Source: an uncultured Ruminococcus sp.
GTDB taxonomy: Bacteria; Bacillota; Clostridia; Oscillospirales; Acutalibacteraceae
Length of the DNA: 46,113 nt
Assembly: GCA_902785555.1 (NCBI GenBank)
Contig: CACZZB010000017.1
Coordinates: 1 to 46,113, forward strand
Direction of reading: 5' to 3'
Notes under the pieces: generated by a model
The model's database searches: none
What the model was told of the DNA's origin: nothing
The model's input: the letters and a program-made list of their open reading frames with translations, nothing else
Translations under genes and position numbers: made by a program
Part shown: positions 527 through 13,030 of the stretch, piece after piece
How positions within the stretch are numbered: the stretch's first letter is position 1
Layout: each line of letters begins with the position of its first letter

Positions 527-1162
527 TCACTCGTTGTGTAAAAATTTTAACTTTTCCAATTCTCTCTTGTATTCTTTGAGCTTTGAATAAATTTCAAATT
601 TCTTTTTGGGCTGCTGCTCTTTCCATGCGGATTTTTCTGTCTTTGCAATCAGCTTTTCAAGCTTTGTTATCTGCTCCTGCAACGCAAGACGTTCATCTAT
701 GGAAAGACTGCCCACATTTTCGGCTTGTTCTTCATAAAGTGCCGTCTGCTCCACAAACGAACTCCATATTTCATCAAGCGAACTGCCGTTCAATGTCAAA
801 GAAATCTCATTTTCATTCTTCCAACTTGTATTATACAATTTATTGTGATAAAGTGCAAGACTTTCTTTTTCGCCACACACAAGCACAAACAACAACTTAT
901 GCTGATTTTGCTTTGCAATAGCCTCCAGAATTCTGCCGTCAAAATCCTCTTTTGTAAGCGTTATACAAAGCACGAGTATTTCTTGTATTTCCGACGGTGT
1001 ATCCAGATTCAAACTGCGGTTTGACAGGCTGTTTTCCATGTCGATACGTTCAACGTCTGTCACAAATTTTTCTTTCAAAACCGCCGTCAGCGTAAGATGT
1101 TTATAAAAAGCCTCTTTGGGTAAACGTCTGTGTACCCTCGTTGAAACAGGAAATTCTATCAT
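527..1162 (-). CDS. DUF4391 domain protein
   Basis: The start is taken at the internal ATG at 1162, because an AAAGGGGG ribosome site lies just upstream; a longer frame to 1204 has no such site. The product is about 211 residues. Its beginning (IEFPVSTRVHRRLPKEAFY) and its lysine/glutamate-rich C-terminal helix, probably coiled coil, fit the DUF4391 family. That family is known mainly from operons with SNF2-type helicases and type III restriction/methylation-like genes. The molecular function is not established; it may be an adaptor of a helicase complex. Here it follows the helicase gene directly. The family call is by recognition of sequence features, not a search. Confidence 0.72.
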   Translation of the reverse strand: MIEFPVSTRVHRRLPKEAFYKHLTLTAVLKEKFVTDVERIDMENSLSNRSLNLDTPSEIQEILVLCITLTKEDFDGRILEAIAKQNQHKLLFVLVCGEKESLALYHNKLYNTSWKNENEISLTLNGSSLDEIWSSFVEQTALYEEQAENVGSLSIDERLALQEQITKLEKLIAKTEKSAWKEQQPKKKFEIYSKLKEYKRELEKLKFLHNE

Positions 1163-1202
1163 AAATACTTCCCCCTTTGTAAAAAGCCAAAATGACACAA
1201 TC

Positions 1203-1234
1203 AATTATTCATTATTAATTATTCATTATTAATT
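1203..1234. repeat. 14-bp tandem duplication between helicase and DUF4391 genes
   Basis: The unit AATTATTCATTATT occurs twice head to tail (1203-1216 and 1217-1230) and a third partial copy (AATT) follows. It lies between the helicase stop and the DUF4391 start. It may simply be slippage in AT-rich DNA. Confidence 0.7.
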
Positions 1235-1236
1235 GC

Positions 1237-4200
1237 TCATATCACCACCATAAAGCATATCAATTCAAAGTCATCAAGTCCCGAAAATCCGCCCGACAGG
1301 AATGTAGTTTGTCCTCCGCCGAAAAAGCTCTCAATATCACTTTCATCTTTGGCATTGATAATTGACATAATGGCATCTTCCAAAAGATGTGATACTCTCG
1401 CCATATTTTTACCGTTGTTGGTAGCCTTGTTGAACATGGAACACAATACTTTATCATGTACAGACTTTCCACGGGCAAGCCTACGCATTATATCAAGCGT
1501 TTCCTTTGGCTGTAAATGGTTGGTGATAATTTCCCCGTCCATTCCCACATATACCATATAGAACGGGTGCAGTCTGTTCTGATTCTCAATGTTGATATGT
1601 TCATTGATATTTTTAAGAATGAAGATAACACCGGGTTTATCGCCCTTTACAACGGCATGGATTCCAAATGGTGTATGGTCTATGTCGGGATGTTCTTTCA
1701 TGTATGCAAGCAAGTCCATGCGGAATTCATTCAGTCCCAAATCCATGATAGAAACACCGTTTGTCATATCTTCGAGGTCAACGACTTCCTCCTGTAATTT
1801 CTGTAACTGAGTACGGCGGTATTCCAAATCACCCTTTTCATTGACGTTGATAAGGTCATCATCACCCGTTGAAGTCATGACGGATATTCTCATTCTCGTT
1901 TCAACTCTCTTTTTGAGATTGATATATTCATCAAGGGCAAGGTCAGGCCAGAAATTGACAAGCTGAATAACGGCGTTTTTACTGCCGATACGGTCAATTC
2001 TTCCGAAACGCTGAATAATACGCACCGGATTCCAGTGTATATCATAGTTAATGCAGTAATCGCAATCCTGCAAATTCTGTCCCTCAGAGATACAGTCCGT
2101 TGCAATAAGAATATCTATTTCATGTTTATCATTGGGATATAAAACATTTTTATCCTTTGATTCGGGAGAAAAACACGCAAGAACATGATTCATATCCGCC
2201 TTGAATTTAGGGATAGTTGTTTTGCCGTCGATCGAACCTGTAACAAGTGCTGTATTCAATCCCAATTCTTTTTTGATAATTGCACTGATATTATCGAATA
2301 AATATTCTGCTGTATCAGAAAATGCGGTAAAGATCAGTATTTTTTTATTGCCCTCATTGATAGGTGAAGAAATTTTCTCACGAATAATTTTCAAAAGCTC
2401 ATTCAGTTTATAGTCATATTTCGGTGTAATATCCTCAACCATAGAGATAAGCAAAGCCAGATTTTCTATATCTTCGTCAATGTCACGTTTCCATGAAAGA
2501 TAATCCATATCACGCAGGTCTATTTTAATTTTCTTTCCGACTGCAAAGAAATCCGTATTCTGATCGTCAAAGTCAAAATCTCCTGCAATCTCTGAAAAAT
2601 CCTGTGTTTCATCAAGAATCGAAATTCCTGTTTTGATAAAGTTTTCTATCACATTTGAAGTTTCGCTGAGAAAATCATATACACGCTGTACCGTCAGCAG
2701 AAAAGAATGTACCGAACTTTCCATTCTTTTGAGTAAATTGATACCCATCAATTTTCGGATACCCATTTCACGACCTTTCCGGAAATTCTCTGTTTCTTCT
2801 TCGTTCAGATATTTATGCAGTTTACTTGCCTGTATGTATATGATTGGTGTATAGATGGTCAGATTAAGTTTTATCAGAATTTCAAATATTTCACGATAGT
2901 TGACTGCACCCGAAAGATTTGTCAGTTTCGGACTCAATGATACAGGTTTATTTCTTTTCGGGAACGTGCCTATATCACTTATATCATAGAAATTTTGAAT
3001 ATGTTTCCTTGAACGTGCTATCGTCACACTGTCAAGCACTTCAAAAAAATCAAAATCAAGCCTTGACAAAAGTGCATTTGTTGTACGCTCGTCATCGGGA
3101 AGTTTACACCAGGCATTATAAACTCTTTGTGCCTGACGGAATATCGTGTCTATATCGGATTTTGTCTTTAATTTTTCATTTATTTCGGCAGGATTTCCCT
3201 CATAGGCAAGGGCAAGCTGATTTCTTAAATCGTTGAAACGATTATTAACAGGCGTCGCAGAAAGCATCAGCACTTTTGTTTTGACACCCGGCTTTATTAC
3301 ACGGTTCATAAGACGCATATAACGATTTTCTTTTTCTCCGCCGTGACTGTTCGTTCCGTTGCCGTTACGGAAATTATGGCTTTCATCAATGACAACAAGA
3401 CCGTAATTTCCCCAGTTGATGTGTTCAATTGGCATACCCATAATCGTTTTTCCGTTTTCTCTCGAAAGGTCTGTATGATAAAGAATGTCATAACTCAATC
3501 TGTCTGCCGATAACGGATTATTGATAAGATTGCCACGAAAATTCATCCAGTTTTCAGATAGTTTTTTCGGGCAAAGCACAAGCACACTTTTATTTCTGCA
3601 TTCATAATACTTGATAACAGCAAGAGCTGTAAACGTCTTTCCAAGTCCCACACTGTCAGCCAAAATACAGCCGTTATACTGTTCAAGTTTATTGATGATA
3701 CCCAGAGCAGCGTCTTTCTGAAAGTTGAACAGTTTATTCCATATCACACTATTTTTGAAACCTGTATTTTCATCGGGCAAAACATCTTCCGAAATATCCT
3801 CCAAAAATTCATTGAAAATATTGTACAGTGTCATAAAATAAACAAGTTCGGGAGAATTTTCCTGATATACCGCACCGATCATTTCAATAACTTCTTCCGT
3901 TACATCTTTCAGTTTTTCCGAGTCTTTCCAAATGGAATTGAATATCCTCAAAAATTCCTTACTTGCGGGATTTTCCATGCGTGTGACCATATTCGTAAGA
4001 TTATTTCCACGCTCACAGCCCAAATCAACAGTAGTAAATGTATTGATCGGCATATATGTATATGTTTCGTCATTACCATCAATCAATAAAAAGTTGTTCA
4101 TTCCCTCATGAGTAGTATTCGTTTTGAAACGCACTTTTTTTCGTATCCATTCCGCACACTCTTTTGCAACGGCTTTCTGCTTGAGTTCATTACGCAGTCT

Positions 4201-4467
4201 TATTTCAAATTCTGTACCATACAAACTCTTTTCTCTTATCAAACGAGGAATATAAAATTCCCGTTTTTCCTTTTTTGACTTTTCGCTGACAAATGTAGGT
4301 GATGTGAAAATAAATCTTAATTCTTCACATGATTCAAGTTGCTTTTTCAATTCCTGATAGGCATATATAGAAAAGCAGGCTGCCGCAACAGATATGCGGC
4401 TGCCTTTTTGTATCGTCTTGATAAGATCATCTCTGACCACTTTGGTTGTATTATTGAAAACTTCCAT
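1237..4467 (-). CDS. SNF2-family helicase with PLD-like N-terminal region
   Basis: The protein of about 1,076 residues is a superfamily 2 ATPase that should translocate on or remodel DNA. Visible motifs: motif I DSVGLGKTF (about residue 271 from this start), motif II DESH, motif III LSATPVNN and motif VI QRFGRIDRIG. The first 170 residues resemble the phospholipase-D-like region often found before this helicase type (IRFIFTSPTF-like strand), but I see no intact HxK pair, so nuclease activity there is doubtful. The start at 4467 is chosen for its GGGGAG ribosome site; the longer frame to 4494 overlaps the upstream gene by ATGA. With DUF4391 downstream and a zinc protein upstream in a mobile element, an anti-phage or restriction-like role is the best inference. 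No methyltransferase is visible in the window. Confidence 0.85.
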   Translation of the reverse strand: MEVFNNTTKVVRDDLIKTIQKGSRISVAAACFSIYAYQELKKQLESCEELRFIFTSPTFVSEKSKKEKREFYIPRLIREKSLYGTEFEIRLRNELKQKAVAKECAEWIRKKVRFKTNTTHEGMNNFLLIDGNDETYTYMPINTFTTVDLGCERGNNLTNMVTRMENPASKEFLRIFNSIWKDSEKLKDVTEEVIEMIGAVYQENSPELVYFMTLYNIFNEFLEDISEDVLPDENTGFKNSVIWNKLFNFQKDAALGIINKLEQYNGCILADSVGLGKTFTALAVIKYYECRNKSVLVLCPKKLSENWMNFRGNLINNPLSADRLSYDILYHTDLSRENGKTIMGMPIEHINWGNYGLVVIDESHNFRNGNGTNSHGGEKENRYMRLMNRVIKPGVKTKVLMLSATPVNNRFNDLRNQLALAYEGNPAEINEKLKTKSDIDTIFRQAQRVYNAWCKLPDDERTTNALLSRLDFDFFEVLDSVTIARSRKHIQNFYDISDIGTFPKRNKPVSLSPKLTNLSGAVNYREIFEILIKLNLTIYTPIIYIQASKLHKYLNEEETENFRKGREMGIRKLMGINLLKRMESSVHSFLLTVQRVYDFLSETSNVIENFIKTGISILDETQDFSEIAGDFDFDDQNTDFFAVGKKIKIDLRDMDYLSWKRDIDEDIENLALLISMVEDITPKYDYKLNELLKIIREKISSPINEGNKKILIFTAFSDTAEYLFDNISAIIKKELGLNTALVTGSIDGKTTIPKFKADMNHVLACFSPESKDKNVLYPNDKHEIDILIATDCISEGQNLQDCDYCINYDIHWNPVRIIQRFGRIDRIGSKNAVIQLVNFWPDLALDEYINLKKRVETRMRISVMTSTGDDDLINVNEKGDLEYRRTQLQKLQEEVVDLEDMTNGVSIMDLGLNEFRMDLLAYMKEHPDIDHTPFGIHAVVKGDKPGVIFILKNINEHINIENQNRLHPFYMVYVGMDGEIITNHLQPKETLDIMRRLARGKSVHDKVLCSMFNKATNNGKNMARVSHLLEDAIMSIINAKDESDIESFFGGGQTTFLSGGFSGLDDFELICFMVVI

Positions 4468-4490
4468 ATAAACATATCTCCCCGAAAAAA

Positions 4491-5441
4491 TCATTCTTCA
4501 TCATAATTCCAGTCATTTTCTTTTATCCAATCTTCAAACTCACGAATCGACAGTCGTTCTTTAAGACAGAGATCACGACGTTTTCGGGCTTTTTTTGACC
4601 ATACTTTGAACTTTGCTTTATCAAGAGTACCATAATCTACCCTTCCTCTTTGACGTTTATATGCTTTCTCATAAATATCCAATACAATTTGTCTTGTATC
4701 ATCGTCTGCCATATCATTTACATCACCTAAATGGCTGAATTTGATCTGACGGCAGGTTTCATTGCGGCTCGTATCAAGTCTTTCGCAGAACTGAACATTT
4801 TTATGGTAATAGCATGGAAAAATTTTTTCGCAGCGTTTGCATTTCTTGAAAAGGATATCTTTTTTTGACATTTCGCAAAAAAGAAAATAAACAACATCGC
4901 TCGTATGTTTAGGATAGAGAACCTGACACATTTTACCATCAATATTCTCCAACTTTGTTGTAATCGTTCTTTCCCATTCAATATCTTTCGGAATTTCTCC
5001 ATTCAGGATTTTAAAAAAGTATAGTTTGATTTTCTTATATTCTTCAAGCAGAATACGATTTATTTCGGGTTGTTGATCATCCTGTCTTTTTACAATGGGA
5101 TAATCAAACCATGTGGAATTCAAATATTCACTGTTATACCCTTCATTGAACCAACTTTCTTTCTGATCCTGAATGAACACATAAAAAGAACCATATTTCA
5201 TTATCTCTCTATGAGGATGAATAACATCTTTTATTTTTCCTTCGGTAACGTACTCCATATAATGGTATGCTGAACCAATCAAATTCCCGACAAAACTAAT
5301 AAATTCTTCATTCATATATACATAATCACAAAGTGCTCTCGGAAAAAAATCATGATACTCAGAAATAAGTTTTTCTTCGTTACTATCCCATATCTGAAAA
5401 TACTCCATATTATCTTTTATAAAAACCTTGTAAACATTCAT
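4491..5441 (-). CDS. DUF6076-like protein with C-terminal zinc-binding region
   Basis: First gene of the leftward cargo operon, about 316 residues from the ATG at 5441; a GTG at 5453 is an alternative start, and neither has a strong ribosome site. The N-terminal two thirds show no motif I know. The C-terminal part carries FKKCKRCEKIFPCYY and then C and CRQI, a C-x2-C ... C ... C arrangement followed by a basic helical tail. This matches DUF6076-type proteins of Clostridia as I remember them, which end in a similar zinc ribbon. Role unknown; nucleic-acid binding is plausible from the zinc site and the basic tail. It ends 23 bases before the preferred helicase start. Confidence 0.6.
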   Translation of the reverse strand: MNVYKVFIKDNMEYFQIWDSNEEKLISEYHDFFPRALCDYVYMNEEFISFVGNLIGSAYHYMEYVTEGKIKDVIHPHREIMKYGSFYVFIQDQKESWFNEGYNSEYLNSTWFDYPIVKRQDDQQPEINRILLEEYKKIKLYFFKILNGEIPKDIEWERTITTKLENIDGKMCQVLYPKHTSDVVYFLFCEMSKKDILFKKCKRCEKIFPCYYHKNVQFCERLDTSRNETCRQIKFSHLGDVNDMADDDTRQIVLDIYEKAYKRQRGRVDYGTLDKAKFKVWSKKARKRRDLCLKERLSIREFEDWIKENDWNYDEE

Positions 5442-5471
5442 AATCGACACCACACATTTTTATTTGATATT

Positions 5472-5833: not shown

Positions 5834-6799
5834 ATGGACAACAAACCTGAATTACGTCTGATAAACATGGCAGATGTTGAAGCGACTGATGTACAATGGC
5901 TTTGGTATCCCTATATTCCCTACGGCAAGATAACCATTATACAAGGCGATCCGGGTGAGGGAAAAACTACTCTTGTGCTGAATTTGGCAGCTATACTGTC
6001 AAGAGGAGAAAAATTGCCCGAAACCGATATCGACATTGAGCCTGTCAATATCATCTATCAGACAGCGGAAGATGGTCTTTCTGATACCGTTAAACCACGC
6101 TTAATTGCCGCCAATGCAAAATTTTCCATGATAACTGTTATTGATGAAAGCAAAAGCCGTCTGTCACTTACCGACAGCCGTTTGGAAGAAGCTATTGAAC
6201 AGACAAATGCAAAGTTGATTATTCTTGATCCTATACAGGCATATATCGGTGCAAGCGTTGACATGAACAGACCAAACGAGATACGAGATATTATGACACA
6301 CCTCAAATTCGTTGCAGAAAAATATCAATGTGCCGTTATTCTTATCGGTCATCTGAACAAGGCTACGGGCATGAAAGCGTCGTATCGTGGTTTAGGCTCT
6401 GTTGATATTCAGGCTGCTGCGAGGAGTGTTCTACTTGTCGGCAGAGTGAAAGACAGCCCAACCATAAGGGTAATGGCTCCAACAAAAAGCAGTCTTGCAC
6501 CCGAAGGTGAACCCATTGCATTTGAACTCAACAAGGAAACAGGTTTTCACTTTATCGGAAAATACGACATTTCCATTGATGATCTTCTGAATGGCACAAG
6601 CAGCGTTTCCAAATTGGAACAGGCAGAAAAACTTTTGAATGATATACTTTCTGACGGAACTCCAAAATCGCAAAAGGTGATACAACAGCAAGCGAAATAC
6701 AGAAACATATCCGACAGAACATTAAACGAAGCCAAAAGAAATTTGAATATCAAATCAATCAAAGCAAAAGACGAATGGCTCTGGCGGTTGCCAAAGTAA
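5834..6799 (+). CDS. RepA-type AAA ATPase (replicative helicase-like)
   Basis: A 321-residue RecA-fold ATPase of the AAA_25/RepA type. Walker A is GDPGEGKT (residues 38-45), Walker B is LIILDP (128-133), and a GHLNK sensor-like motif (near 173) precedes an RGLGSVDIQAAARS segment typical of hexameric RepA-like helicases. A C-terminal region of about 80 residues looks like a winged-helix or primosome-like tail. In plasmids and integrative elements such proteins unwind DNA during autonomous replication. It starts immediately after the HTH gene and is followed by a 620-base region with iteron-like repeats, which fits a replication module. Exact replication mode is unknown. Confidence 0.82.
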   Translation: MDNKPELRLINMADVEATDVQWLWYPYIPYGKITIIQGDPGEGKTTLVLNLAAILSRGEKLPETDIDIEPVNIIYQTAEDGLSDTVKPRLIAANAKFSMITVIDESKSRLSLTDSRLEEAIEQTNAKLIILDPIQAYIGASVDMNRPNEIRDIMTHLKFVAEKYQCAVILIGHLNKATGMKASYRGLGSVDIQAAARSVLLVGRVKDSPTIRVMAPTKSSLAPEGEPIAFELNKETGFHFIGKYDISIDDLLNGTSSVSKLEQAEKLLNDILSDGTPKSQKVIQQQAKYRNISDRTLNEAKRNLNIKSIKAKDEWLWRLPK

Positions 6800-7422: not shown

Positions 7423-7824
7423 ATGAAACCTGAGAAGAAAACAGAGCAAATTTTAATAAGAGTGACACCTTCAGAAAAGAAATACATCACCGAAAATGCT
7501 GCGGCGGCACACATGAGTATATCGGCATACTTGGCAAGAGTGGCTGAGGAGAAAAAAGTTGTTGCATTGGATAATCTGCCGCAACTGATTTATCAGGTCA
7601 TGAAAATCGGTGTCAACATCAATCAGATCGCCTATATAGGCAACAGTCAGCGAATTCTTTACAAAGAACAGTTGCTTGCAGTTGTCAATCAGATGGAGGA
7701 AGTTAAGAAAATTCTTAGAAAAATCCTTGCAGCGATTTATGACGAAAAAGAGTGCAGTATCAAAACGCTTGAAAAGAAAATTGAAAAACTGATAGAAAGC
7801 GTGAGTGTGAATGGCAACGGTTAA
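7423..7824 (+). CDS. mobC: MobC relaxosome accessory protein
   Basis: A 133-residue protein. The N-terminal part (ILIRVTPSEKKYITENA ... MSISAYLAR) is a ribbon-helix-helix-like DNA-binding region, and the centre has GVNINQIA, a hallmark of the MobC family. The C-terminus is helical. MobC binds near oriT and helps the relaxase melt and nick DNA. A GGAGAG ribosome site precedes the ATG. The gene overlaps the relaxase gene by 14 bases, the usual coupled arrangement. Confidence 0.88.
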   Translation: MKPEKKTEQILIRVTPSEKKYITENAAAAHMSISAYLARVAEEKKVVALDNLPQLIYQVMKIGVNINQIAYIGNSQRILYKEQLLAVVNQMEEVKKILRKILAAIYDEKECSIKTLEKKIEKLIESVSVNGNG

Positions 7825-9655
7825 ATCGGTAAAGTCTGCAATCAAATCACGGGAATATGTTGCAAAGTCTATAAAATACATTCTGTCACCCGAAAATAAA
7901 GAGGGAAATGAAAAATGTATTCAGTCAAGTTTTTTGAATTGTTGCGGTGACTGCACAAACGATTTTGTTATGCAGTTTGAAATTACAAGATTGGCATTTG
8001 GCAAGAACGATAACATTTTGGCTCACCACTATGTTCAGAGTTTTTCTCCAAATGAAAAAATCACTCCTGACGTGGCACACCAAATCGGCAAAGAATTGGC
8101 AGAATGTGTTGCACCGGGATTTCAAGTTATCGTTGCAACTCACGTTGACCGTGACCATGTGCATAATCATATTTTGATAAATTCCGTTGGCATGAAAACG
8201 GGTATGAAGTGGCTTGGCAATTTAGCGACATTGAAAAATATGCGTGAACAGAGTGATAGGCTTTGCAGGGAATACGGCTTATCGGTCATCAATCAAAAAA
8301 CAGGTCTGCGTGGCATAGACCAGGCTACACAAAAATTAGCCGAACAGGGAAAATCATGGAAAGTGGAATTATGCAAAGCACTTGATGAAGCTGTCAAACA
8401 GTGCAGCCGAAAGAAAGAGTTTACCGAATTTATGAAACGCAAAGGATTTGAAATAACCCGTTATACTGACAGACATATCACTTTTCAAAAAATCGGTGAA
8501 ACGAAAAAGATAAGAGTGAATACCCTTGCGGAACAGTTCGGAGATTATTACACGAAAGAAAATTTGGAGCGTCTGATGGGATTTTACGGAATTCCGAAAC
8601 CTTTGGAAAATCTTCCTCTGCCAAAACCGAAAAAACCGTTTATCACGGAATTTGAAAAATATGAAAAAGCATATTTTCAGGAAAATCCGCCGTTGACAAA
8701 TCCCATTGAAGCAAAGGCATTACAGATTTTGATAAACAGTTCAACAAGTCCGTTTTTTAATTTGGTGCTGATACTTGCAAGGCTTATTCTCCGCAGAAAA
8801 CGCAGAAGTGCCTTTGACCAAAGATATGATTTTCTGCACCTTAAACTCAAAAAGCAAAAGCGTTATCAAACAAAAAAGCCCGATTCCCAAAAACTGCTGG
8901 AACGTGTTGATGACAATCCTCAGAATGTCGGAAATATCCCATACAGAAATTTGATACACGCACAAGGCGAAAATTATCGTGTAAGGCTTTCTATATCAGC
9001 TATTCCAAAATTATATGCTTATCCGTTTTTCTTTTCCTGCAGGATTTACAGTGATCATGCAATCGTGACTTTTAAGAAAAAAGACAGACCGCTTTTTGAA
9101 AAAATATTTGAAATTGAAGATGTGCAGCGTCTTGAACGGCACAATAACTATTACACGCCGTCGGAAAACTATCAGGAAATGAAAAGGAAGGCAAAACTTT
9201 TGGGAGTAGAGCCGGAATTTTTGATGATAGAAACGTCAGAGCTTGAAAAGCTGAATAACGAAAAAGACCGTTTTGTAGCAGTGACCACAAAAGAGGGAAA
9301 AATCCGTTTATCGTTTTTGCCGCAGAATAAGGATTATATTCTGCATTGTCTTTATCCCGAAAAACATCAGGCAGTTGACAATGACTTGTTTTCGGTTGTC
9401 AGAAATGCAAAAGTCAATACCATGCTGAAATCGGAAGCACTTCTTCATAACAAGAAAATGCGTTACAGAGTGCTGACAAGGACACAGGTAGAGAAACTTC
9501 AAAAAGAAACTCAGGGACAGGAAATATTTGCTGTGTTCAGCAAAAATGATGAAACTCATCAGGAAGAAAAATATAATGTTGCTTTCAAGGAAGATGATGA
9601 ACAAACAATAGATAACATTCTGGAAGATACCTATAAACCGAAATTCAGGAGATGA
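7811..9655 (+). CDS. Relaxase/mobilization nuclease (MobA/VirD2-like)
   Basis: A 614-residue protein. The relaxase domain covers about the first 250 residues. The metal-binding motif III is HVDRDHVHNHILIN (from residue 111), with the histidine triad, and the probable nicking tyrosine lies in IKYILSPEN (about residue 23). These proteins nick oriT, stay covalently on the 5' end and pilot the strand into a recipient cell. The remaining 360 residues are basic and of unknown fold, possibly used for secretion or helicase contacts. Its start lies inside mobC and has only a weak ribosome site, which suggests translational coupling. It probably belongs to the MOBP-like group; the exact class was not tested. 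Confidence 0.88.
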   Translation: MATVKSVKSAIKSREYVAKSIKYILSPENKEGNEKCIQSSFLNCCGDCTNDFVMQFEITRLAFGKNDNILAHHYVQSFSPNEKITPDVAHQIGKELAECVAPGFQVIVATHVDRDHVHNHILINSVGMKTGMKWLGNLATLKNMREQSDRLCREYGLSVINQKTGLRGIDQATQKLAEQGKSWKVELCKALDEAVKQCSRKKEFTEFMKRKGFEITRYTDRHITFQKIGETKKIRVNTLAEQFGDYYTKENLERLMGFYGIPKPLENLPLPKPKKPFITEFEKYEKAYFQENPPLTNPIEAKALQILINSSTSPFFNLVLILARLILRRKRRSAFDQRYDFLHLKLKKQKRYQTKKPDSQKLLERVDDNPQNVGNIPYRNLIHAQGENYRVRLSISAIPKLYAYPFFFSCRIYSDHAIVTFKKKDRPLFEKIFEIEDVQRLERHNNYYTPSENYQEMKRKAKLLGVEPEFLMIETSELEKLNNEKDRFVAVTTKEGKIRLSFLPQNKDYILHCLYPEKHQAVDNDLFSVVRNAKVNTMLKSEALLHNKKMRYRVLTRTQVEKLQKETQGQEIFAVFSKNDETHQEEKYNVAFKEDDEQTIDNILEDTYKPKFRR

Positions 9656-9721: not shown

Positions 9722-9931
9722 TTGGAAATATATAACAATGAAAAAGACAATTATATTTCGGTATGGATGACAAAGGAAGAACAGCAGCTTTTTGACCGTC
9801 AGGAATTGACAGATTTACTTCTTTCAAATGTCAAAAATAAAAAATGCAAAGTTATCTATTTTTTATCGGGCAACGGCGATCTGTACAGCAATACAGAAAT
9901 TCTGCTTACAAGAAATTTAGGGTGTGCTTAA
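9722..9931 (+). CDS. Small hypothetical protein between relaxase and recombinase
   Basis: A 69-residue frame with a TTG start preceded by AAAGGGG. The sequence is acidic at the start and has a VIYFLSGNGDLY stretch that looks like a beta strand and turn. I recall similarly placed proteins of about 70 residues between the relaxase and recombinase in related clostridial elements, but no function is known to me. The stop codon lies inside the hairpin of the terminator that follows. Confidence 0.6.
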   Translation: MEIYNNEKDNYISVWMTKEEQQLFDRQELTDLLLSNVKNKKCKVIYFLSGNGDLYSNTEILLTRNLGCA

Positions 9932-9960: not shown

Positions 9961-9989
9961 TTTACAAATAAAAAATTATATGTTACAAT
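9961..9989 (+). promoter_or_regulatory. Promoter of the serine recombinase gene
   Basis: TTTACA (9961-9966) and TACAAT (9984-9989) are 17 bases apart, about 50 bases before the recombinase start and just after a terminator. The recombinase thus appears to have its own transcript. Confidence 0.6.
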
Positions 9990-10042
9990 GTTGACAGAAA
10001 AATATAATATTTTTAAACAACATGGATAGAAAGGAGATTAAA

Positions 10043-12220
10043 ATGGCCGAAAATTTGAAAATAGCCGGATATTGTCGTATTTCCGTAGATGAAGAACTTG
10101 ACAAAGACAATACTTCTATCGAAAACCAAAAGGCAATTATTGCCGACTATGTAAAAAGAATGTTTCCCGATTCAGAGCTTGATTTTTATGATGACCGTGA
10201 CCGTTCGGGATATACATTTGAACAACGTGAAAATTATCAGATTTTGCGTAAAAAAATGTTTCGCAGGGAATATGATATTCTCATTGTAAAGGATTTTTCG
10301 AGATTTTCCAGACGTACAAGCCGTGGACTCGTGGAATTGGAAGACTTGCGTGATGTCGGTATGCGTATCATTTCCATTGGTGACGGCATAGATTATCCGA
10401 CTTCTGATGATTGGACAGCCATTCAGTTCAGATTTCTGATAAATGAAATGCCCGTGACCGATACTTCAAAGAAAGTCAAGGCAGTTATCAAACACCGACA
10501 GGAAGAAGGAAAATGGATATGTGCCGTACCCTACGGATATGTCATGACAAACAGTAAATTGATGAAATTCACGGTTGATGAACCGTCAGCCGAAATTGTC
10601 AGAAAAATATTTCAGCTTTATGCAGACGGCTGGGGATATAAAAAAATTGCCAACTATCTCACGGATAACCATATTCCAACTCCGAGAAAATCCGAAGAAA
10701 TGCGGAAAGAGGCTGAGGGAGAAGAATATGCCGTCCGTTCAAAGCCTGAATGGAGTATTGTAACGATAAGTGAAATTCTGACAAATGACTTTTATATCGG
10801 CACACTCAGACAAAGAAAATACCGCCGTAAAAAAATCAACGGCGGAGATATGAAATTACAGGAAACAGACCATATTGTGATTGCAAATAACCATGAACCG
10901 ATTGTTGATTTCAAGCTGTTTTCAGTCGTACAGGAACAAATGAAACTGCGTTCCAAATCGAATTATCGTGGCATAAAGAAATATGACAATGTATATACGG
11001 GACATTTATTCTGCGGTGACTGCGGAAGTCCCATGTTTGCCATGAGCCGTTCCGATTTGGAGCCTGCCTACACCTGCGGAACTTATCATAAAAGAGGTCT
11101 GAAAGGCTGTACTTCCCATCATACAAGGGTAGATATGCTTGATAAACTGCTGAAAGAGTTCGTGCAGAAAGTCAAGGATAATTCGGAAGAAATGCTTGAA
11201 CAACTGCAACAATCCATTGACAAGGAACAGAAAGAAACTTCTTCAAGCAAAAATATTGTAGAAGTGCTTTTGCAGAAAATTGAAGATACAAAGACAGAAA
11301 TAAAATTGCTTAATCGTCAGCGTGTAAATGACATTAAGAAAAGACCTGAAAGAGAAGATATGATTTCGGAAGTGTATGACGAACAGATTGACGATTTGTT
11401 ACAGCAGATAGAGGGCTTTCAGAATCAGATACAGCTTGCAACGGATAAGCATAATGCCATTGTCAGCATGAACAGAACGGCTAAAACCGTTATGGAGATA
11501 TTTGACACGATACTCAATAAAAAGTCACTCAGTAAAATTGATGTAGATTTTATCGTTGACAGGATAGACGTTTATAAAAAGCATATTGATATCAAGCTGA
11601 AATCGGATATAGATGCCCTGCTGAAAACAGGCATTCCCGCCGAATTGCAGACGGAGGAAACTACCGTAAATTTTGATTCGGACACTGAGAAATCCGAAAA
11701 TCTCACGCCATTCGCCAAAGTAAAAACAAGCAAAGGCGAAATTCTTAGTGTCAATATTATCAGTGAGGGCGACCCGCTTGAAATATATACCGATACAAAC
11801 GGTGAAGTCATATTCAAAAAATATTCCCCTATCGGTGAACTTTCAGGCTTTGCAGAACAGTATGCGGAAGTTCTCGGCAAAATCTCAAAATCGCCTATAC
11901 TCATCAGCGATAATGACCATATCATAGCTGCCGCAGGTATTTCAAAAAAAGAGATTCTTGAAAGGCGTATATCAACTATGCTCGAAGAATATATCGAAAA
12001 ACGTAAATCTTTTTACGCAAGCACAGGCGGTGAAAATGCACTTATTCCCGTTGAAGGCATTGAAAAAAGTGCTGCTGTCATGTATCCGATAATTTCAGCA
12101 GGTGATGTTACAGGTTCTGTTATTATGCTGTTCAATGATAATAAGTCCATGCCTACCGAAACAGAAAACAAGCTCATACAAACTGCAGCTGCATTTCTTG
12201 CAAAACAAACGGAAGACTGA
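10043..12220 (+). CDS. Large serine recombinase fused at its C-terminus to SpoVT
   Basis: The ATG at 10043 is chosen because AAGGAG (10031-10036) precedes it; a frame starting at 10022 would contain that site. The 725-residue product has a serine resolvase domain (YCRIS, catalytic Ser14), a recombinase domain (about 160-300), a zinc ribbon (CGDCGS near 324, then CGTYHKRGLKGC) and a coiled coil (about 370-480), as in TnpX/TndX integrases of Tn4451-type elements. Such proteins normally end near residue 570. Here the frame continues from about residue 575 (EGDPLEIYTDTNGEVIFKKY) into a good match to SpoVT from its residue 30 to its end, including the GAF domain. The fusion is best explained by integration into spoVT. 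Whether the tail changes recombinase activity is unknown. Confidence 0.92.
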   Translation: MAENLKIAGYCRISVDEELDKDNTSIENQKAIIADYVKRMFPDSELDFYDDRDRSGYTFEQRENYQILRKKMFRREYDILIVKDFSRFSRRTSRGLVELEDLRDVGMRIISIGDGIDYPTSDDWTAIQFRFLINEMPVTDTSKKVKAVIKHRQEEGKWICAVPYGYVMTNSKLMKFTVDEPSAEIVRKIFQLYADGWGYKKIANYLTDNHIPTPRKSEEMRKEAEGEEYAVRSKPEWSIVTISEILTNDFYIGTLRQRKYRRKKINGGDMKLQETDHIVIANNHEPIVDFKLFSVVQEQMKLRSKSNYRGIKKYDNVYTGHLFCGDCGSPMFAMSRSDLEPAYTCGTYHKRGLKGCTSHHTRVDMLDKLLKEFVQKVKDNSEEMLEQLQQSIDKEQKETSSSKNIVEVLLQKIEDTKTEIKLLNRQRVNDIKKRPEREDMISEVYDEQIDDLLQQIEGFQNQIQLATDKHNAIVSMNRTAKTVMEIFDTILNKKSLSKIDVDFIVDRIDVYKKHIDIKLKSDIDALLKTGIPAELQTEETTVNFDSDTEKSENLTPFAKVKTSKGEILSVNIISEGDPLEIYTDTNGEVIFKKYSPIGELSGFAEQYAEVLGKISKSPILISDNDHIIAAAGISKKEILERRISTMLEEYIEKRKSFYASTGGENALIPVEGIEKSAAVMYPIISAGDVTGSVIMLFNDNKSMPTETENKLIQTAAAFLAKQTED
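11750..11795. other. Probable right attachment site (element/spoVT junction)
   Basis: Protein similarity to SpoVT begins at the GAG codon at 11765, so the crossover lies in or just before GAGGGCGACCC. Large serine recombinases cut at a 2-base core; a GA lies within this stretch. The exact core needs the left junction or an empty site for comparison. Confidence 0.6.
11765..12220 (+). pseudogene. spoVT: 3' part of spoVT, joined in frame to the recombinase
   Basis: The last 151 codons match stage V sporulation protein T from the end of its AbrB-like DNA-binding domain through the whole C-terminal GAF domain. Landmarks are EGDPLEIY, KKYSPIGEL, GISKKEILER and the terminal TAAAFLAKQ. SpoVT is a forespore regulator that needs its N-terminal swapped-hairpin DNA-binding domain, which is missing here. 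The missing N-terminal 29 codons should lie left of the element, outside the window. The remnant is still translatable as part of the recombinase and shows no stop or frameshift, which suggests either recent insertion or retention for use after excision. Confidence 0.9.
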
Positions 12221-12272: not shown

Positions 12273-12323
12273 GTTGAATTTGAGAGAATTGTGTGATAAA
12301 ATTCTTTCTAAGGGGTGTTATAT

Positions 12324-13030
12324 TTGAAAAAGTATCATACAAAAGAACAGATGTCGGAAGCATTTCTGACAGGAGCAATTTTATCTGTTGTCGGGGGATA
12401 TTTTGACGCTTACACTTCGCTTACACTTATATTGCAAGAGGCGGTGTATTTGCCAATGCACAAACGGGAAATATTGTTTTGCTTGGGGTAAAACTTATGG
12501 AGGGTGATTTCCTAAAAGCACTTACATATTTTATCCCAATATTTGCATTTGTATTGGGCGTATTTGTGGCAGAGTACATAAGAAAAGTTGGCAACTCAAA
12601 ACATCTTCACTGGCGACAGATAATTATTTTGATAGAAATTCTGATAGTAACAGCGGCAGCGTTCATGCCAAACGGTGAAAAGGGCTTCAAAACTTGTGAC
12701 ATGATAGTGAACATAGCGATATCTTTTGTGTGTTCATTGCAGGTGCAGAGCTTCAGAAAAATTCACGGTATAGCCTGTGCCACAACCATGTGTACGGGAA
12801 ATATGCGTAGTTTTGCCGATAATCTGGTACAGTATACGGACACTAAAAACAAACAGTTTCTCAAAAACGCAGTCAAATATTTTATGATAAACCTTTTCTT
12901 CATAGCAGGTGCAATAATAAGTGCCCCGATAACAAATATATTCGGTGAAATGTCAGTCATTTTCTGTGTAATAGGTCTTCTGACAGTTCTTATACTTATG
13001 TTCATAAAGCCTTTTGAGAATGAACAATAA
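12324..13030 (+). pseudogene. YoaK/DUF1275 family membrane protein, frameshifted
   Basis: A TTG start at 12324 with an AAGGGGT ribosome site opens a frame encoding the first part of a DUF1275 (YoaK-like) multi-pass membrane protein (SEAFLTGAILSVVGGYFDAY). An 11-base perfect tandem duplication (CGCTTACACTT, 12407-12417 and 12418-12428) then shifts the frame. Removing one copy restores DAYTYIARGGVFANAQTGN, the family signature, which continues into the open frame ending at 13030. The remaining frame from 12479 encodes most transmembrane helices but lacks the signature. The family is of unknown transport function. The gene is inactive as written, but a tandem repeat of this kind could be lost by slippage. 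Confidence 0.88.
12407..12428. repeat. 11-bp perfect tandem duplication that breaks the YoaK-like gene
   Basis: CGCTTACACTT occurs twice head to tail. Eleven bases are not a multiple of three, so the reading frame shifts exactly here. Confidence 0.92.

What the first reader, a model, noticed from the sequence alone, without database searches (positions are those of the whole stretch)
10043..12220. Serine recombinase fused in frame to the SpoVT regulator: an element that has integrated into a sporulation gene
The recombinase continues without a stop into the C-terminal 151 residues of SpoVT (EGDPLEIY..., KKYSPIGEL, TAAAFLAKQ). Seen: one open frame with both parts. Known: sporulation genes such as sigK are interrupted by recombinase elements (skin) that excise during development. 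Inferred: the element targets spoVT, and either it is removed before SpoVT is needed or the host has lost that step. The integrated recombinase also gains a ligand-binding-type GAF domain, which could tie its activity to the host, while the excised form would end differently.
Basis: partly seen in the sequence, partly recalled or inferred. Interest (0 to 1): 0.93.

Follow-up and report, generated by a model that had tools for sequence, protein, structure and literature searches.

The report
Mobile elements splitting sporulation gene spoVT
In many Ruminococcus-type gut bacteria a mobile DNA element sits inside the sporulation gene spoVT, cutting it in two and joining the element's own recombinase in frame to the gene's second half; precise removal of the element is predicted to restore the gene, so finishing a spore would likely depend on the element leaving.

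Summary
Window 10043-12220 is one open frame: a large serine recombinase joined at a GGCGACCC core (11768-11775) to SpoVT from codon 32 on. It is the only SpoVT_C above cut-off in the genome. The window is a whole contig, and the left end of its own element is not assembled. Relatives supply it: 30 of 39 genomes with such a fusion also hold a separate SpoVT N-terminal piece, and 27 of those 30 could be read to break off at residues 31-33. In the seven pairs that lie on one contig (11.6-57.3 kb, including R. bicirculans and two R. flavefaciens), joining the flanks gives a 180-181 aa SpoVT in 7 of 7. Joining the element ends lets the recombinase run in frame into a different, recurring tail. attP is an inverted repeat inside the recombinase gene. 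Near-identical spoVT alleles carry different recombinases (55-65% identical), so these are mobile, recurrent insertions. In B. subtilis and C. difficile SpoVT acts in the forespore, the cell that becomes the spore, unlike the mother-cell targets of known elements. My searches found no published spoVT element. A conserved 69-aa gene upstream (9722-9931) is my directionality-factor candidate.

The parts
10043..12220 (+). Recombinase-SpoVT fusion ORF, 725 aa (an alternative start at 10022 gives 732 aa)
10043..11770 (+). Large serine recombinase part (residues 1-576); Y10, R12, I13 and S14 of the YCRIS motif are invariant in 23 aligned fusions
   Evidence: the closest solved recombinase by sequence is the SPbeta integrase YokA 9dxh; that S14 is the catalytic serine is recalled
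11748..11761 (+). GTGTCAATATTATC: element-side (P) half-site at the right end, read by the recombinase frame as SVNII
   Evidence: Inverted repeat with the left-end arm in 16 of 17 relative pairs, reached by <=1% of shuffles
11768..11775 (+). GGCGACCC core shared by attL and attR; likely crossover dinucleotide GA at 11771-11772, in the SpoVT Asp32 codon
   Evidence: the dinucleotide is inferred from core variants
11771..12220 (+). Host part: spoVT from codon 32 to its stop (second half of the AbrB domain plus the GAF-type SpoVT_C)
   Evidence: AlphaFold model (mean pLDDT 68.7, pTM 0.41): residues 600-724 mostly pLDDT 70-88, residues 534-595 below 50
9961..9989 (+). sigma-A-like promoter TTTACA-17-TACAAT of the recombinase gene; same hexamers and spacing in L045, L046, L047 and L087
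   Evidence: consensus match only, 23 of 38 loci have a best site with at least 10 of 12 matches
9722..9931 (+). Small conserved ORF (69 aa, TTG start) just upstream of the recombinase; candidate recombination directionality factor (untested)
   Evidence: Homologue upstream of the recombinase in 33 of 42 loci by tblastn, and in L045; alignment; no Pfam match above cut-off, no convincing PHROG, no PDB fold match at E<=0.001
7811..9655 (+). MobA/VirD2-type relaxase (PF03432): element cargo
7423..7824 (+). NikA/MobC-type mobilization protein
5834..6799 (+). AAA_25 ATPase, element cargo
527..5453 (-). DUF4391, SNF2-type helicase (best PADLOC model C3a139 HKD+Snf2) and DUF6076 proteins: probable defence-type cargo

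Best explanation
By its match to seven complete relatives, the window's ORF is the right end of a mobile element whose large serine recombinase gene has no stop before the crossover core and reads straight into spoVT at codon 32; in those relatives the first 31-32 codons of spoVT lie at the element's other end, and precise excision would likely restore the gene when the cell needs it. Shown by sequence: two ends, one shared core, an inverted-repeat attP lying inside the recombinase gene, an in-frame rejoined SpoVT of 180-181 aa in 7 of 7 pairs, and a recombinase frame that swaps its C-terminus with state (SpoVT/GAF when integrated, a recurring tail of about 25 residues when circular). Inferred: the recombinase catalyses both reactions. 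Inferred: the sigma-A-like promoter makes it available in growing cells, so integration is the default. Inferred: a directionality factor, likely the 69-aa ORF at 9722-9931, turns on excision. Because SpoVT acts in the forespore in better-studied hosts, excision would have to happen in the cell line that becomes the spore, and the element would have to reintegrate after germination or be lost. The confidence below is for the element anatomy and its reversibility; timing of excision to sporulation I put at about even odds.
For: Single ORF and its domains. Only SpoVT_C above cut-off in the genome. N-terminal SpoVT piece in 30 of 39 genomes with an open fusion frame, among 50 genomes searched with full SpoVT; 27 of the 30 read to break at residues 31-33 and continue in frame into an element tail. 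Proteins of this N-piece-plus-tail kind head a database search (best 120 of 7998 listed). All seven same-contig pairs, G082 20,180 bp, G074 18,216, G060 24,381, G075 54,281, G077 57,250, G084 24,983 and G081 11,588: SpoVT rejoined in frame in 7 of 7, recombinase in frame into the tail in 7 of 7. Inverted-repeat attP in 16 of 17 pairs. Tail codons beyond the attP arm have median dN/dS 0.49 (152 pairs) against 1.36 and 1.47 in the other frames. Recombinase dN/dS median 0.046 over 25 pairs. Mobility: 24 of 6786 protein pairs have SpoVT-C >=97% identical but recombinases only 55-65% identical; recombinase pS is below SpoVT-C pS in all 20 nearest recombinase pairs of 496. Hosts carry sporulation genes: spoIVA in 65 of 68 handles (five handles are duplicates, so 60 of 63 distinct genomes) and a full-length sigG-like match in 26 of 28. 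SpoVT depends on forespore sigma factors and is needed for heat-resistant spores in C. difficile (PMC3789822, passages).
Against: No excised circle or attP junction was found: none of the 13 listed proteins carried the predicted circular tail, although assemblies would rarely hold one. The left end of the window's own element is missing from the assembly. Nine of 39 fusion genomes gave no N-piece, and in three of the 30 (G063, G066, G099) the piece could not be read cleanly. Three fusion loci (L074, L078, L086) are frameshifted near the junction, and L045/G060 has lost the attP half-site at its right end, so some copies may be stuck. Two fusion genomes (G091, G102) gave no spoIVA match, two (G084, G097) no sigG match, and none of the 26 sigG matches reached the curated cut-off. 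The equal constraint on split and intact N-terminal codons (median dN/dS 0.026 each) may date from before insertion. Further down the table the pS order sometimes reverses (G081/G082, G061/G064). No expression or read data were available.
Confidence: 0.85

Rival explanations
1. Ordinary mobilizable element: it uses the conserved spoVT codons only as a landing site, excises rarely for transfer, and simply costs the host its spores while integrated. The anatomy is the same, but no developmental control exists.
For: Patchy distribution. Horizontal movement and varied cargo, with relaxase and Mob genes in the window. Some copies look stuck. The recombinase promoter looks sigma-A-like, with no sporulation-specific signal seen.
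Against: Most genomes with the split gene keep spoIVA and a sigG-like gene, although recent insertions would too. The split N-terminal codons are as constrained as intact ones, with the same caveat.
Confidence: 0.45
2. Domesticated fusion: the recombinase-SpoVT protein is itself a useful regulator and the split is permanent.
For: One recombinase cluster holds 63 of the 117 full-length listed fusion proteins. L045/G060 has lost its attP half-site yet keeps the frame open.
Against: The first half of the AbrB domain is missing, and the rest of it lies mostly in a stretch of pLDDT <50. The fusion is patchy, different recombinases are joined to near-identical alleles, and attachment-site arms are kept in 16 of 17 pairs.
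Confidence: 0.07
3. Assembly or annotation artefact joining two unrelated genes.
For: The window is a whole contig of a draft of 164 contigs.
Against: The same junction occurs in 120 of 120 listed database proteins, in R. bicirculans 80/3 chromosome II (record titled complete sequence) and in isolate genomes of R. flavefaciens.
Confidence: 0.005

Closest known systems
skin (sigK), SPbeta (spsM), vfbin (spoVFB), gin (gerE), yin (yabG): sporulation-gene intervening elements
   Same: A serine-recombinase element splits a sporulation gene at a short core flanked by inverted repeats, and excision rejoins the gene; gin, too, carries no phage genes (PMC5595907 and PMC10747680 passages; PMC4191935 passages).
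   Different: The target is spoVT, a forespore regulator elsewhere, whereas excision of the earlier elements is stated to be confined to the mother cell so that the spore keeps the element (PMC4191935 passages). Here the recombinase gene itself crosses the attachment site and fuses to the host gene, and elements of different size and gene content use one site. spoVT occurs 0 times in the gin and yin texts.
Integration-dependent immunity of mycobacteriophage BPs
   Same: attP lies inside an element gene, so integration changes that protein's C-terminus and makes a state switch (PMC4557955 passages).
   Different: There the gene is the repressor and integration truncates it, removing a degradation tag. 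Here the gene is the recombinase and integration adds a host GAF domain.
TnpX/TndX-type large serine recombinases of mobilizable elements and the SPbeta integrase SprA/YokA
   Same: Resolvase, Recombinase and zinc-ribbon domains; sequence matches to YokA and to a TnpX N-domain structure; likely GA crossover, as recalled for TnpX.
   Different: Integrates into spoVT in nearly all copies seen, and its reading frame continues into the target gene.

Membership tests
Sporulation-gene intervening element | Element splits a sporulation gene into 5' and 3' parts at one site | tested here: met
   N-piece plus fusion in 30 of 39 fusion genomes; same contig and strand in seven. In the window's own genome only the right half is seen.
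Sporulation-gene intervening element | Element-encoded site-specific recombinase beside an attachment site with a shared core | tested here: met
Sporulation-gene intervening element | Precise excision recreates an intact reading frame | tested here: met
   In silico only: 7 of 7 pairs give 180-181 aa SpoVT
Sporulation-gene intervening element | Excision occurs during sporulation in the mother cell | not testable with these tools
   Needs cultures; the forespore role of SpoVT elsewhere argues against the mother-cell part
Sporulation-gene intervening element | Recombination directionality factor encoded in the element | tested here: inconclusive
   Conserved small ORF in 33 of 42 loci plus L045; no family or fold match; activity untested
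Integrative mobilizable element | Relaxase and mobilization genes with integrase and attachment sites | tested here: inconclusive
   Window has relaxase, Mob protein and recombinase; by tblastn with the window's proteins only 1 of 7 complete relatives (G084) has a related relaxase, and unrelated relaxases were not sought
Prophage | Structural or packaging phage genes | not tested
   No dedicated scan; none among the window element proteins scanned with Pfam and NCBIfam
Integration-dependent switch (BPs type) | attP inside a gene whose product changes C-terminus on integration | tested here: met
   In silico, 7 of 7
Integration-dependent switch (BPs type) | The two protein forms differ in activity or stability | not testable with these tools
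   Needs protein assays

The most novel reading that the evidence does not exclude
spoVT elements are a germ-line switch: they excise in the forespore itself, survive as a circle (or are lost) in the spore, and reintegrate at germination, so each spore passes through an element-free spoVT. The recombinase reads its own state through its C-terminus: only the integrated enzyme carries the host's ligand-binding GAF domain, which holds it inactive or tunes excision to a sporulation signal, while the circle's enzyme ends in a short tail that favours integration.
Probability: 0.3. Interest if true: 0.92.

Novelty: new variant of a known kind. Interest (0 to 1): 0.8.

Why it matters
The sporulation-gene elements described so far escape loss by excising in the mother cell, which dies. 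An element in a forespore gene breaks that rule, so either it leaves and re-enters the inherited genome or its hosts cannot finish spores while they carry it. Both outcomes matter for how gut Ruminococcus spread between hosts, and both can be tested by PCR in a cultured type strain. The attachment site inside the recombinase gene also gives a clean natural test of whether swapping a recombinase's C-terminus sets its direction, which is of interest for serine-integrase tools.

Tried and rejected
Second intact spoVT or SpoVT N-piece in the window's genome: not found. The AbrB hit at C4:68201 is a separate 80-aa AbrB protein with two CxxC pairs, not a spoVT fragment. Left end of the window's element via L094 upstream DNA and via the G101 left end: only short matches (such as C86:4-204 and C61:1-179), not enough to place it.

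Circular form in databases: none among 13 listed. Fold match for the 69-aa protein: none at E<=0.001. Its Pfam, PHROG and PDB sequence matches were weak and unconvincing.

Purifying selection on the split N-terminus as proof of function after insertion: not accepted, because searches show that the elements moved between hosts. SpoVT-C dN/dS: only 6 fused pairs and 1 intact pair passed the divergence filter, so it is not informative. Tail codons 1-7, inside the attP arm, show no protein constraint (median 0.92); the case for a coding tail rests on codons 8-23 alone.

A permanent, conserved fusion gene: rejected as the general rule by patchiness. In the cut listing four matches have frames over 700 aa, the window's own included; unlisted rows were not seen.

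Literature: the listings of searches showed no spoVT-intervening element; 'spoVT' with 'serine recombinase' gave 0 papers. Papers were seen as search listings with abstract starts, except PMC5595907, PMC10747680, PMC3789822, PMC5814915, PMC4557955 and PMC4191935, of which I saw matched passages. A subscription or preprint report could exist outside this library. vfbin is known to me here only from passages in PMC10747680 and PMC5595907.

Full report
WHAT IS THERE. Window 10043-12220 (+) is a single 725-codon frame. Residues 1-576 are a large serine recombinase and residues 577-725 are SpoVT from Asp32 to its end. In an alignment of 23 fusions (the window and 22 of the 120 listed database proteins) Y10, R12, I13 and S14 of the YCRIS motif are invariant. 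The genome (2.83 Mb, 164 contigs, 98.99% complete) holds no other SpoVT_C above cut-off. The window is contig C17 in full, so the left end of the element lies outside it.

NOT AN ACCIDENT, AND NOT ONE CONSERVED GENE. A database search limited to long proteins gave 1919 matches to the SpoVT part; in all 120 listed the join reads GDPLEI(Y/F). A scan of species genomes gave 52 loci, 30 of them with Ruminococcus in the record title. Yet the fusion is patchy. Among 60 genomes (the window's and 59 relatives) most SpoVT_C matches sit in frames of 176-252 codons, and only G000, G018 and G006 have frames over 700. A cut listing of 297 family genomes shows four, the window's own included.

THE OTHER END. 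I searched 50 genomes behind 50 of those 52 loci with full SpoVT. 39 have a long open fusion frame; 30 of these also hold a separate SpoVT N-terminal piece, and 9 do not (G067, G068, G078, G088, G090, G094, G096, G104, G105). Three more have a frameshifted fusion (G089, G093, G100), two have spoVT cut at contig ends (G101, G109), one has only a partial fusion at a contig end (G079), and five have intact spoVT (G087, G095, G106, G107, G108). Of the 30 N-pieces, 27 read as SpoVT to residue 31-33 and then an element-encoded tail in frame; those of G063, G066 and G099 could not be read cleanly. A database search with one such piece is headed by many proteins of about 59 aa with the same tail.

REJOINING. 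In all seven pairs that share a contig and strand, cutting at the core and joining the flanks gives SpoVT of 180 aa (six) or 181 aa (one). Joining the element ends lets the recombinase run in frame into a tail such as LTQEHNFIMAIKDIAERLHI. The two element ends form an inverted repeat around the core, GTGTCAATGTTATC / GATAACATTGACAC in consensus, in 16 of 17 pairs; in L045/L128 the right arm is gone. Tail codons 8-23, beyond the attP arm, have median dN/dS 0.49 against 1.36 and 1.47 in the other two frames, while codons 1-7 show 0.92. That fits a real protein end beyond the DNA site. So attP lies within the recombinase gene, and the enzyme's C-terminus depends on whether the element is in or out.

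MOBILE. Two database proteins with identical SpoVT-C carry recombinases only 55% identical (P0025, P0026); 24 of 6786 protein pairs have SpoVT-C >=97% and recombinases below 75% identical. Proteins sharing the SpoVT motif TATDGEVIFKKYSPV fall into eight recombinase clusters (SpoVT-C 73-100% identical between representatives). In the 20 nearest recombinase pairs of 496, synonymous difference is lower in the recombinase than in the adjoining SpoVT part; further down this sometimes reverses, and codon bias could contribute. Of eight window proteins searched by tblastn, only the recombinase has a match in all seven complete elements, and the relaxase and Mob protein match in one. A small ORF just upstream of the recombinase recurs in 33 of 42 loci, plus L045. 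It is predicted to fold (mean pLDDT 85.8) but matches no solved fold at E<=0.001.

HOSTS AND SPORULATION. spoIVA is present in 65 of 68 handles tested; five handles are duplicates, leaving 60 of 63 distinct genomes. Two fusion genomes, G091 and G102, gave no match. Full-length sigG-like matches occur in 26 of 28 genomes (not in G084 and G097), all below the curated cut-off. In C. [quoted passage not shown] R. bromii, a relative, makes spores (PMC5814915 passages); I saw no statement there on sporulation of R. bicirculans or R. flavefaciens.

HOW IT LIKELY WORKS. Shown by sequence: the split, the core, the attP geometry, and in-frame products in both states. Inferred: integration is the default from a sigma-A-like promoter (TTTACA-17-TACAAT at 9961-9989), a small element protein reverses it, and SpoVT is then rebuilt. 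Whether this is timed to sporulation is open, and the plain mobilizable-element reading is nearly as likely. The model of the fusion has modest overall confidence (pLDDT 68.7, pTM 0.41); it shows the GAF part as a better-scored domain behind a stretch of pLDDT below 50 (residues 534-595). The domain could act on the recombinase, but nothing here tests that. Contigs of G109 and G093 end exactly at the core, which suggests two states in the sample; that could be strain mixture as well as excision.

AGAINST WHAT IS KNOWN. The kind, a serine-recombinase element in a sporulation gene, is known: skin, SPbeta/spsM, vfbin, gin, yin. I did not find the spoVT target, the recombinase-host fusion or the spread in Ruminococcus in the papers I could search. 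The nearest precedent I found for an attachment site that rewrites a protein end is integration-dependent immunity in mycobacteriophage BPs.

Noticed in passing
window 12315-13030 (+): The DUF1275 (YoaK-like) gene next to spoVT seems to be read in two overlapping frames, 12315-12491 and 12479-13030, suggesting a frameshift or sequencing error.
   Followed up: no
window 527-5453 (-): DUF4391, SNF2-type helicase (PADLOC C3a139 HKD+Snf2, E 5.5e-124) and DUF6076 in a row: candidate anti-phage cargo of the element.
   Followed up: partly
L072 (R. flavefaciens NALB_7963_3) and L080: Close recombinases not joined to SpoVT, in genomes with intact spoVT; the sequence after the core is unrelated to spoVT, so secondary sites seem possible.
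   Followed up: partly
L092:1416-3419: A truncated recombinase remnant and repeat-rich DNA lie just upstream of an intact spoVT, like a scar of an old element.
   Followed up: partly
L045 / G060:C20: The right-end attP arm is missing while the fusion frame stays open; this copy may be unable to excise.
   Followed up: partly
L153 (G109:C101) and L154 (G093:C65): Contigs end exactly at the GGCGACC core after the SpoVT N-piece, as if the assembly graph branched there.
   Followed up: partly
G000:C4:68201-68440: 80-aa protein with an AbrB domain and a C-terminal segment with two CxxC pairs; short AbrB matches of 81-102 codon frames occur in several relatives.
   Followed up: no
upstream of spoVT in L024, L098, L127, L128, L129, L138, L140: A recurring (T/G)G(A/C/T)ATA ... 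AAATA-rich motif precedes spoVT in both intact and split loci, possibly a forespore promoter (consensus recalled, not tested).
   Followed up: no
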